Positions 918-63,989 of a stretch of DNA of 64,000 nt are shown piece by piece; within the stretch, counting starts at the first letter, position 1, and the number at the start of each line of letters is the position of its first letter. The DNA is from Lampris incognitus (lineage: Eukaryota > Chordata > Actinopteri > Lampriformes > Lampridae): assembly GCF_029633865.1 (NCBI RefSeq), contig NC_079216.1:19132677-19196676 (forward strand). Reading direction: 5' to 3'. The notes beneath the pieces are model-generated. The model saw only the letters and a program-made list of their open reading frames with translations, ran no database searches and was not told the DNA's origin. The position numbers were made by a program, and so were the translations under genes.

Positions 918-1093
918 GAGGGGCGGAGCATGTCCAGGATGTCTCTGAGCAGGTCTCCAGTGTCTCCTATGACTGCCCAGGGCATCCCCTCCCCGGCCCA
1001 GCTGACCAAGGCCAACGCCCCCGTCCACATCGATGTAGGGGGCCACATGTACACCAGCAGCTTGGCTACTCTCACCAAATACCCCGAGTCCAG
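918..1093 (+). CDS. kctd15: kctd15 exon with start codon and first part of BTB domain
   Basis: The 3' splice site is CCCTGACAG before 918; the 5' splice site is AG/gtaaga after 1093, splitting an Arg codon. ATG is at 930-932 with a second Met three codons later. It encodes the S/P-rich N-terminus and the first BTB strand and helix. The four codons before the Met (EGRS) resemble the residues before the internal Met of the long human isoform, suggesting that this exon can also be read through from an upstream coding exon. Confidence 0.92.
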
Positions 1094-63000: not shown

Positions 63001-63989
63001 CAGAAAATCACTCATCGTATGTCATTGTTGTGCATTGTACTGATTGTAAAGTCCTTCGGGACTACCTTATGATTTTTGGGCTATACAAATAAACTTGACT
63101 CAAAGCATAAACAAGACAGGACTGTACTGGTCACTACACAGACACGCATTCACTGTCATTCTGCACCTTTTCCATGGACTTTAATCAACTCTGTTAAGAC
63201 AACAGAAGAGGTTTTATTTGTTTTTCTCTGACACGGCATTGTTACTTTGCTTTCTTCTCACCAGGAAAGCAAATGAGAAGTCTGGATTGACAGGGTTCCC
63301 AAGGTATATAATCCCTTCTCTGTCACCGCCAGTAATTGTTTTCTTCAGCATTGTATACTCCTCCCCTGAAAATCCACATTTACAAAATAGGAGGGACTGC
63401 ACACTCGAAATAAAAAAAAATTTTTTTTAAATAAGGGAACCTGTGCGATTTACAAACCACAGGAGGCTGGGCTTTTTCCATAGAACAGTTGTGTCAGATT
63501 CTTTGATTTTATTAGAAAAGAATGCCATGTGAGTTTTTTTTTTTATCTGTCATAATTCATATTATTTTTCCCCACACTTGAGAATAGATTGGAATGATTG
63601 AAAAATGTAATGTAAGAAAGCATGAAAAGTGCTATAGCCCTACACTATCACTACCATTAGATTCAGGATATTTTTCCGTCATTACTCAGCCATGTTTTTT
63701 ATTGATTTGTTTATTTATTTATGTTAATTCCTGATGCGGTCACTGCAGGGAGCGGAGGCAAACCTGGGCTGAGGAGAGGCGGATGAATGCTGAGACGTTT
63801 GGCATCCCCCTGCGTCAGAACCGGGGTCGAGGCGGTTTCCGTGGCCGTGGCGGCATGGGCTTCCGCGGGGGCAGGGGTCGCTCGGCCAGCCGAGGGTCCT
63901 TCGGCCCACCCCACGGAGGAGGCGGCTTCAGGGGAGGATACAGAGGGAGCCAGGGAGGTCGGGAGTTTGCAGACCTACCAGAGTACAGG
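53914..63989 (+). CDS. lsm14a: LSM14A (RAP55): mRNP / P-body protein, 3' end outside window
   Basis: Exons 53914-54034, 54901-55064, 55278-55437, 57121-57330, 57712-57792, 58419-58598, 62681-62852 and 63749-63989 join in phase to 443 codons; human LSM14A has 463, so little is missing. Residues 1-83 are the N-terminal LSm domain ([40 protein letters not shown]); a S/T/P-rich linker follows; then RG-rich basic sequence, the DFDF box ([20 protein letters not shown]), the FFD box ([13 protein letters not shown]), the TFG box ([16 protein letters not shown]) and RGG repeats. The family binds DDX6 and 4E-T, represses translation, supports P-body assembly and spindle integrity, and senses viral nucleic acid. 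MSGGTPY (not MSGSSGTPY) and the RGG tail identify LSM14A rather than LSM14B. The donor near 63990 (AGG/gtaacg) is probable. Confidence 0.95.
54901..55064 (+). CDS. lsm14a: lsm14a exon 2: rest of LSm domain
   Basis: Between tcctccatag and CAG/gtacac; encodes [40 protein letters not shown] and [10 protein letters not shown], nearly identical to human LSM14A. A SINE fragment begins about 23 bp past the donor. Confidence 0.97.
55088..55193 (-). mobile_element. SINE family B fragment beside lsm14a exon 2
   Basis: TGGAGCCTATCCCAGCAGTC to GACCATCACGGGGCCAGACC, about 105 bp, starting 23 bp after the donor of exon 2. Confidence 0.8.
55278..55437 (+). CDS. lsm14a: lsm14a exon 3: S/T/P linker
   Basis: [47 protein letters not shown]; matches the human linker ([29 protein letters not shown]). 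Acceptor cttccttag, donor GTGG/gtaagg. The segment that follows in human (GSSLTSFGTET and on) has no visible counterpart before exon 4. Confidence 0.93.
55988..56610. repeat. Tandem duplication, 2 x ~310 bp, in lsm14a intron 3
   Basis: TGCACCCCACTCTCAGAGCA near 55991 recurs as TGCACCCCAGTCTCAGAGCA at 56301 and the following 300 bp are collinear (for example CAGTTCATCTCTACCCTGAT and GATGCATGATAGGTTTTGC in both). Divergence is low. Confidence 0.9.
57121..57330 (+). CDS. lsm14a: lsm14a exon 4 (short-donor form)
   Basis: After tgcctcag; [20 protein letters not shown], corresponding to human [20 protein letters not shown], then A/P/T-rich sequence to SLDARR. The donor GGGAGGG/gtgaga at 57331 is phase 1; a second, equally good in-frame donor lies 129 nt downstream. 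Confidence 0.9.
57331..57459 (+). CDS. lsm14a: Candidate alternative extension of lsm14a exon 4
   Basis: 129 nt of open frame in phase after the first donor ([20 protein letters not shown], then [18 protein letters not shown]), ending at a second strong donor CCCAAG/gtgaga. Use of either donor keeps the frame. I recognise no domain and know of no human equivalent. Confidence 0.4.
57712..57792 (+). CDS. lsm14a: lsm14a exon 5
   Basis: 81 nt, phase 1 to 1, between ctattccag and ACAG/gttaag: [20 protein letters not shown] then ETSKRST. It aligns with human [20 protein letters not shown], which supports it although it is short and has no Met. Confidence 0.88.
58286..58350. repeat. (AT)n microsatellite
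   Basis: About 32 AT units, about 70 bp upstream of lsm14a exon 6. Confidence 0.98.
58419..58598 (+). CDS. lsm14a: lsm14a exon 6: basic RG segment and DFDF box
   Basis: [59 protein letters not shown]; the DFDF box contacts P-body partners in family members. Acceptor aaatgcag, donor AAAG/gtaggt. Confidence 0.97.
58850..59030 (+). mobile_element. SINE family C, 3' part
   Basis: GACATGCATGTTAGGGTTAA through GCCCACTGCTCCTAGCTAC and GAGTTAAATGTAGAG to an A-run; the tRNA-like head is missing. Confidence 0.75.
59597..60815 (-). mobile_element. Tc1-like transposon, full length, inactive
   Basis: 30-bp inverted ends (CACTCACTGGCCACTTTATT...) differ at few positions and lie between TA dinucleotides; 1219 bp. 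Confidence 0.95.
59629..60668 (-). pseudogene. Tc1-like transposase, nearly intact
   Basis: [40 protein letters not shown], then [20 protein letters not shown] and the DDE core [46 protein letters not shown]. One TAG stands where related copies have Gln (ISSERQFCGRK motif), and a one-base loss in the G-run near the C-terminus (KAKGGPTRY in relatives) lets the frame run on past the usual stop at 59629. Confidence 0.93.
62681..62852 (+). CDS. lsm14a: lsm14a exon 7: FFD box
   Basis: [60 protein letters not shown] box as in human ([16 protein letters not shown]). Acceptor tgactcag, donor ACTAG/gtaaat, phase 2. Confidence 0.97.
63265..63303 (+). CDS. lsm14a: Candidate 39-nt cassette exon of lsm14a
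   Basis: Between ctttcttctcaccag and CCAAG/gtatat lies a stretch reading (R)[13 protein letters not shown] in phase 2 to 2, so its inclusion between exons 7 and 8 adds 13 residues between the FFD and TFG boxes without changing the frame. The acceptor tract is strong, the donor moderate. Confidence 0.5.
63749..63989 (+). CDS. lsm14a: lsm14a exon 8: TFG box and RGG repeats
   Basis: After cactgcag: [40 protein letters not shown], then [23 protein letters not shown]. The TFG box is intact. The probable donor AGG/gtaacg is 10 nt from the window edge; the last few codons are outside. Confidence 0.93.

What the first reader, a model, noticed from the sequence alone, without database searches (positions are those of the whole stretch)
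930..63989. TAF4 between KCTD15 and LSM14A: possible third TAF4 ohnologue
In human, KCTD15 and LSM14A are neighbours on 19q13.11 with no TAF4 gene, TAF4 is next to LSM14B and PSMA7 on 20q13.33, and TAF4B is next to KCTD1 and PSMA8 on 18q11.2. That pattern implies an ancestral KCTD-TAF4-LSM14 block quadrupled by the vertebrate genome duplications. Here an intact TAF4 sits in the KCTD15/LSM14A version. It has TAF4-like ends ([27 protein letters not shown]) but a TAF4B-like AVAQHR segment. It may be a third ohnologue kept in fish and lost in mammals, or TAF4 itself in a rearranged block.
Basis: partly seen in the sequence, partly recalled or inferred. Interest (0 to 1): 0.7.

Follow-up and report, generated by a model that had tools for sequence, protein, structure and literature searches.

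The report
Third vertebrate TAF4 gene in fish
This fish DNA carries an intact extra copy of a core gene-switching protein, TAF4, that most likely dates from the genome doublings at the origin of vertebrates and whose place in the human genome has no TAF4 gene, so fish and mammals may use different sister copies.

Summary
The window carries an intact 14-exon TAF4 gene (972 aa; minus strand, 53194-11545), tail-to-tail with KCTD15 and head-to-head with LSM14A (720 bp between start codons). The same 1.48-Gb genome holds four detected TAF4 loci. Two sit beside genes taken as LSM14B (one also beside SS18L1), as human TAF4 does. The other two are the window gene (C9) and a twin on C5. Both lie between KCTD15 and LSM14A with GPI further along, the human 19q13.11 block (recalled) plus a TAF4. 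KCTD1 and SS18 are together on C17, but the domain searches find no TAF4 there, so TAF4B's home site looks empty. A small unrooted tree keeps the window pair apart from human and fish TAF4; a fish-specific copy of TAF4 is rejected, though that test leans on a human TAF4B sequence recalled from memory. Best reading: a third TAF4 ohnologue from the early vertebrate duplications, kept twice after the teleost duplication under strong purifying selection, while TAF4B was lost here. Open points: no outgroup, no other fish or shark genome, and no call names the species, so kinship to TAF4B and other fishes are untested. Probable role: a TFIID subunit like TAF4/TAF4B.

The parts
930..8696 (+). KCTD15 (start codon to stop; exons at about 930-1090, 2845-3000, 5828-6133, 8537-8696; inner borders not set exactly)
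   Evidence: BTB_2 30 bits; solved relatives KCTD1/KCTD15; 86% to recalled human KCTD15 against 75% to KCTD1 6s4l over 103 columns; tail with SQFSEYVL and KQEPLD
11545..53194 (-). TAF4 paralogue, 14 exons, 972 aa, intact
   Evidence: gene model; Pfam TAF4 302 bits and TAFH 106 bits
52009..53194 (-). exon 1, N-terminal motif [33 protein letters not shown] and low-complexity T/S/P-rich region
   Evidence: matches TFIID subunit 4 residues 1-35, E 1.1e-5
50883..51049 (-). exon 2 ([18 protein letters not shown])
   Evidence: counterpart found in both LSM14B-linked TAF4 copies and on C5
41560..41760 (-). exon 3
   Evidence: splice signals and frame only
39295..39417 (-). exon 4, first half of the TAFH domain
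39101..39190 (-). exon 5, second half of the TAFH domain
38044..38238 (-). exon 6
   Evidence: splice signals and frame
34905..34986 (-). exon 7
   Evidence: splice signals and frame
32709..32814 (-). exon 8
   Evidence: splice signals and frame
30410..30579 (-). exon 9, start of the histone-fold region
   Evidence: PF05236, model
29658..29788 (-). exon 10, histone fold, holds AVAQHR
28349..28474 (-). exon 11
27371..27427 (-). exon 12
21963..22085 (-). exon 13 ([19 protein letters not shown])
11545..11706 (-). exon 14, C-terminus [28 protein letters not shown] and stop
53195..53913 (.). shared TAF4/LSM14A upstream region, 720 bp between the two start codons (head-to-head)
   Evidence: the same arrangement on C5 and at C2:16.93 M
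53914..63990 (+). LSM14A (5' part; runs beyond the window); exon pieces at about 53914, 54900, 57110, 58430, 62640, 63735, by eye
   Evidence: PF12701 55 bits; best solved match LSM14 homolog A, E 5e-25

Best explanation
The gene is a third TAF4 paralogue from the early vertebrate (2R) genome duplications. It sits in the KCTD15-LSM14A-GPI block, at the place and in the orientation expected for TAF4 in an ancestral block KCTD-TAF4-LSM14-SS18. The human version of this block has lost it (recalled). In this fish it survives as two copies, C9 (the window) and C5, which I date to the teleost-specific (3R) duplication, while the TAF4B copy beside KCTD1 appears to be absent. It should work as a TFIID subunit: the histone fold pairs with TAF12, the C-terminal domain holds a TFIID lobe together, and the TAFH domain receives activators. 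Shown: gene structure, neighbours, the four TAF4 loci, no further TAF4 match in the domain searches, constraint on the sequence. Inferred: 2R origin, 3R origin of the twin, loss of TAF4B, and the function, which comes from the known roles of TAF4 and TAF4B.
For: Four TAF4 loci take 18 of 18 PF05236 matches; each has a divergently oriented LSM14 gene beside it (7 of 13 LSM14 matches). C9 and C5 both read KCTD15-TAF4-LSM14A with GPI further along (20 of 22 PGI matches). C2:16.93 M has TAF4, an LSM14 gene and an SS18-type gene, and its C-terminus gives 414 bits to TFIID subunit 4. KCTD1 is on C17, 90% to KCTD1 6s4l, with SS18 56 kb away. No TAF4 or TAFH match was found on C17 or C3, and none at E 0.01 in 35 kb next to the KCTD1 tail. 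The tree separates {C9, C5} from {human TAF4, C2 copies} with support about 99/100. dS is 1.76 for C9-C5 and 1.86 for the two C2 copies; dN/dS of C9-C5 is 0.037 over 287 codons.
Against: The tree has no outgroup and only six sequences; one of them, human TAF4B, is recalled, and it forms a long branch. Raw identity of the window gene is higher to human TAF4 (70.5%) and fish TAF4 (72.8%) than to recalled TAF4B (64.9%). Columns shared with both TAF4s against TAF4B number 33, with TAF4B against both TAF4s 15. Of the roughly 51-kb SS18-KCTD1 interval on C17, about 16 kb was not read; it is covered only by the domain searches, whose counts the tool calls lower bounds. PSMA7, a neighbour of human TAF4 (recalled), was not found in either 100-kb C2 block, and its genome-wide search did not complete. 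Exon 1 of the C2:127.6 M copy was not found, so its distance from LSM14 is unknown. No other fish, shark or tetrapod genome could be examined. dS values near 1.8 are saturated and date nothing.
Confidence: 0.83

Rival explanations
1. The gene is the orthologue of mammalian TAF4B: only two TAF4 lineages existed, and the position of TAF4B differs between fish and tetrapods through gene movement.
For: Shared residues with recalled TAF4B: 10 clean columns in the C-terminal part and 6 in TAFH, one of them in a doubtful alignment position, including AQHR, EQER and the ALLK end. No separate TAF4B was found in this genome.
Against: TAF4B sits tail-to-tail with KCTD1 (recalled) and the window gene tail-to-tail with KCTD15; both are the expected ancestral slot. 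A move would have to land exactly between KCTD15 and LSM14A in the ancestral orientation. Both KCTD1 and KCTD15 genes persist in this fish. TAF4 and LSM14 point away from each other at all four loci.
Confidence: 0.12
2. It is a fish-specific duplicate of TAF4 itself, moved or duplicated next to KCTD15.
For: Raw identity is higher to TAF4 than to recalled TAF4B, and the N-terminal motif is TAF4-like.
Against: Fish TAF4 at C2:16.97 M groups with human TAF4 and excludes the window pair; grouping the window pair with fish TAF4 or with human TAF4 is rejected, AU p 0.004 and 0.0002 (this test uses recalled TAF4B as the outside sequence). The neighbours KCTD15 and LSM14A are not those of TAF4.
Confidence: 0.04
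3. The twin on C5 is not a 3R duplicate but a later segmental or lineage-specific duplication (this would leave the 2R reading of the gene untouched).
For: Only the two copies of one genome were compared.
Against: dS 1.76, about as high as for the two TAF4-LSM14B copies (1.86), and both blocks share KCTD15, LSM14A and GPI.
Confidence: 0.07

Closest known systems
TAF4 (human TFIID subunit 4; fish C2:16.97 M copy)
   Same: TAFH domain, histone fold, C-terminal domain, N-terminal motif, divergent LSM14 gene next door
   Different: 70.5% identity to human TAF4 in the C-terminal part, where the fish C2 copy has 80.7%; neighbours KCTD15/LSM14A/GPI instead of LSM14B/SS18L1
TAF4B (recalled human sequence; germ-line TFIID subunit)
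   Same: AQHR, EQER, ALLK end, [17 protein letters not shown] in TAFH; tail-to-tail with a KCTD gene
   Different: KCTD15 instead of KCTD1; keeps the TAF4-type N-terminal motif, which TAF4B as I recall it lacks; shorter branch in the tree
C5:52.60-52.75 M copy in the same genome
   Same: same block, 80.6% identity in the C-terminal part, first 41 TAFH residues identical
   Different: about 151 kb instead of 42 kb long; exon 1 about 38% identical to that of the window gene over the aligned part

Membership tests
TAF4 family (PF05236 + PF07531) | TAF4 histone-fold and C-terminal domain | tested here: met
   302 bits, profile 1-262 of 262
TAF4 family (PF05236 + PF07531) | TAFH domain upstream | tested here: met
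   105.6 bits; match to TFIID subunit 4 2p6v, E 2.8e-27
TAF4 family (PF05236 + PF07531) | incorporation into TFIID, pairing with TAF12 | not testable with these tools
   needs biochemistry
Orthologue of human TAF4 | groups with human TAF4 to the exclusion of TAF4B | tested here: not met
   AU p 0.004 and 0.0002 for the two nested placements; TAF4B sequence recalled
Orthologue of human TAF4 | LSM14B-PSMA7-SS18L1 neighbourhood (recalled) | tested here: not met
   neighbours are KCTD15, LSM14A, GPI; the genome-wide PSMA7 search did not complete
Orthologue of TAF4B | KCTD1-PSMA8-SS18 neighbourhood | tested here: not met
   KCTD1 and SS18 are on C17 without a detected TAF4; about 16 kb there not read
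Orthologue of TAF4B | nests within gnathostome TAF4B in a rooted tree | tested here: inconclusive
   unrooted tree with one recalled TAF4B sequence
2R ohnologue | lies in a block whose neighbours are themselves paralogues of the neighbours of TAF4 and TAF4B | tested here: met
   KCTD15/KCTD1 and the two kinds of LSM14; that TAF4B adjoins KCTD1 is from PMC3436827 (passage) and recall
2R ohnologue | presence in gar, shark or other non-teleost vertebrates | not testable with these tools
   no such genome is held; scans of the bacterial/archaeal and viral collections gave no relative

The most novel reading that the evidence does not exclude
The vertebrate ancestor had at least three TAF4 genes, and fish and mammals have sorted them reciprocally: mammals kept TAF4 and TAF4B, while this fish lineage kept TAF4 and the KCTD15-linked gene, each twice, and lost TAF4B. 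Genes called taf4b in teleosts would then be hidden paralogues of mammalian TAF4B, and the germ-line role of TAF4B could not be carried over by name.
Probability: 0.5. Interest if true: 0.62.

Novelty: new member of a known kind. Interest (0 to 1): 0.5.

Why it matters
TFIID is the general factor at RNA polymerase II promoters, and TAF4 is one of its structural core subunits. A third vertebrate TAF4 lineage means that the set of alternative TFIIDs was larger in early vertebrates than human genes suggest. It also means that teleost taf4b may not correspond to mammalian TAF4B, a gene linked to ovarian and testicular function (recalled); a tilapia paper, for one, treats fish taf4b as orthologous to the mouse germ-line gene (PMC9316214, one figure legend seen). 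Gene-name transfer, knock-out comparisons and orthology tables would be affected. The claim can be tested at once with public gar, shark and teleost genomes.

Tried and rejected
Comparison sequences outside the PDB were sought in the bacterial/archaeal genome collection and the viral collection with an alignment of the window and fish TAF4 C-termini: 409 and 17 pattern hits, none confirmed. The PDB matches to the C-terminal queries were three sequences named TFIID subunit 4 or 135-kDa subunit (human by recall), so there is no outgroup and no TAF4B. Papers: nine searches. No listed title or abstract start points to a TAF4 between KCTD15 and LSM14A (one search listed 15 of 18); taf4 + kctd15 + lsm14a gave 0 papers, and at least 3 of taf4b, zebrafish, lsm14a, kctd15 gave 0. 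One or two passages each were seen in PMC3436827, PMC9690401 and PMC9316214; of the other papers only search listings. Whether the gene is already annotated in Ensembl or NCBI under a taf4-type name could not be checked.

TAFH matches at C2:135.37 M and C24:22.25 M were suspected to be a stray TAF4B; they read like ETO-family proteins (assigned by eye) and were dropped. Six of the 13 LSM14 matches (C14, C10, C22, C1, C2:149.7 M, C9:49.07 M) were not examined. An SSXT match on C5 was first taken for a third SS18 copy; it reads like SS18L2 (by recall). At E up to 1 the C17 interval gave weak hits to TAF4 exon-1 and TAFH queries (E 0.3-0.8), one of them in a retrotransposon-like frame; they were taken as noise. 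Most of the N-terminal exon is low in complexity and was left out of the tree.

Full report
What is there. The window holds three genes in the order KCTD15 (+), TAF4 (-), LSM14A (+). The TAF4 gene has 14 exons with GT-AG introns and an open frame of 972 codons from 53194 to about 11545. It carries the TAF4-type N-terminal motif, a TAFH domain and the full TAF4 histone-fold/C-terminal profile. KCTD15 was told from KCTD1 by identity: 86% to recalled human KCTD15 and 75% to KCTD1 from the PDB. LSM14A matches LSM14 homolog A in 42 of 43 residues of the best printed stretch; LSM14B was not available for comparison. The TAF4 and LSM14A start codons are 720 bp apart, head-to-head.

The rest of the genome. 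The window lies on C9 of an unnamed 1.48-Gb assembly with 537 contigs. PF05236 gives 18 matches, all at four loci: C9 (5), C5 (5), C2:16.97 M (5), C2:127.6 M (3). TAFH gives 10 matches: 7 at the same four loci, and 3 at two loci that read like ETO-family genes. Each of the four TAF4 genes stands beside an LSM14 gene in divergent orientation (at C2:127.6 M exon 1 was not found). At C2:16.93 M the neighbours are an LSM14 gene, taken as LSM14B, and an SS18-type gene, taken as SS18L1; PSMA7 and KCTD queries found nothing in either 100-kb C2 block. At C2:127.69 M there is another LSM14 gene. At C5 the order is KCTD15 (52.578 M), TAF4 (52.595-52.746 M), LSM14A (52.747 M), an SS18L2-like gene (52.780 M) and GPI (52.926-52.936 M); at C9 it is KCTD15, TAF4, LSM14A and, about 10 kb beyond the window's end, GPI. 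Genes in between were not searched for. Human 19q13.11 has KCTD15, LSM14A, GARRE1, GPI (recalled).

TAF4B. KCTD1 is on C17 at 6.7485 M, and SS18 is 56 kb away, both on the minus strand; in human they also share a strand (recalled). A diverged KCTD1-like gene is on C3; its surroundings were not read. No TAF4 or TAFH match lies on C17 or C3. The stretch C17:6708400-6743733 was read and has no TAF4, TAFH, LSM14 or PSMA7 match at E 0.01, while the KCTD1 tail is found there. As a control, the TAF4 queries find the exons of the window gene, and those of the diverged C2:127.6 M copy in part. About 16 kb of the interval was not read.

Sequence relations. In the C-terminal part the window gene is 80.6% identical to C5, 72.8% to C2:16.97 M, 70.5% to human TAF4, 64.9% to recalled human TAF4B and 52.4% to C2:127.6 M. 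The tree of the C-terminal part alone gives {C9, C5} 97.3/97 and {human TAF4, C2 copies} 96.7/93; with TAFH added it gives 99.1/100 and 99.4/100. Moving the window pair next to fish TAF4 or next to human TAF4 is rejected, AU p 0.004 and 0.0002. The tree is unrooted and one of its six sequences is recalled, so it shows that the window pair is not part of TAF4; it does not show whether its nearest relative is TAF4B. Fifteen columns side with recalled TAF4B against both TAF4s, 33 side with both TAF4s against TAF4B; the long TAF4B branch may explain many of the latter.

Constraint. Over 287 codons of conserved domains C9-C5 has dN 0.065, dS 1.76 and dN/dS 0.037; the two C2 copies have dN 0.192, dS 1.86 and dN/dS 0.10 over 196 codons. 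dS is saturated, so the numbers say old and similar, no more. The two KCTD15-linked copies are under strong purifying selection in these domains, while the C2:127.6 M copy looks eroded in exons 12-13.

Interpretation. The ancestral block was KCTD -><- TAF4 <--> LSM14, with SS18 beyond. Recalled human remains are KCTD1-TAF4B-PSMA8-SS18, TAF4-LSM14B-PSMA7-SS18L1 and KCTD15-LSM14A. The window fills the gap in the third. The step from place to origin (2R ohnologue) is inference from synteny, and I hold it at 0.83. The gene should act as a TAF4-type TFIID subunit; that step is from the known family and was not tested.

Noticed in passing
G000:C5:52577790-52578101 (L034): The KCTD15 copy on C5 reads NSVQCRLEPGPPRTSSASPLNG where the window copy reads [21 protein letters not shown]: a stretch that looks out of frame and returns, perhaps an assembly error or a real compensated shift.
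   Followed up: no
G000:C5:52779000-52780700 (L040): An SSXT-domain gene reading like SS18L2 lies about 33 kb behind the start of LSM14A on C5. Human SS18L2 is on 3p22 (recalled), so it may be the SS18 member of this paralogous block.
   Followed up: partly
G000:C2:127.634-127.665 M: Second LSM14-linked TAF4 copy with eroded exons 12-13 (SQAWQEDPKQLCPEQKAKE, QLRRRKADLVAQVAICPWKKRK); exon 1 and the first TAFH half were not found: a diverging or dying duplicate.
   Followed up: partly
G000:C2:16.93 M and 127.69 M: Both TAF4-LSM14B copies lie on one 152-Mb contig, about 110 Mb apart, which suggests a fusion of two chromosomes that were duplicates.
   Followed up: no
G000:C9:60925717-60926259 and C1:25230721-25230987: Long uninterrupted GPI matches away from the two GPI genes, possibly retrocopies.
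   Followed up: no
window 17994-18941, 46392-47501, 59484-60497 (all minus): Tc1/mariner-type transposase frames, the last open over 337 aa; recognised by eye in the ORF list, no family search.
   Followed up: no
window 16839-17833, 21043-21945, 31191-32407 (minus): Reverse-transcriptase-like frames of LINE elements inside TAF4 introns, by eye.
   Followed up: no
G000:C17:6718400-6743733: The apparently TAF4-free interval beside KCTD1 holds tandem repeats (frames read WWSEWDVSER and GAGESVLLGA) and a retrotransposon-like element with long open frames, by eye.
   Followed up: no
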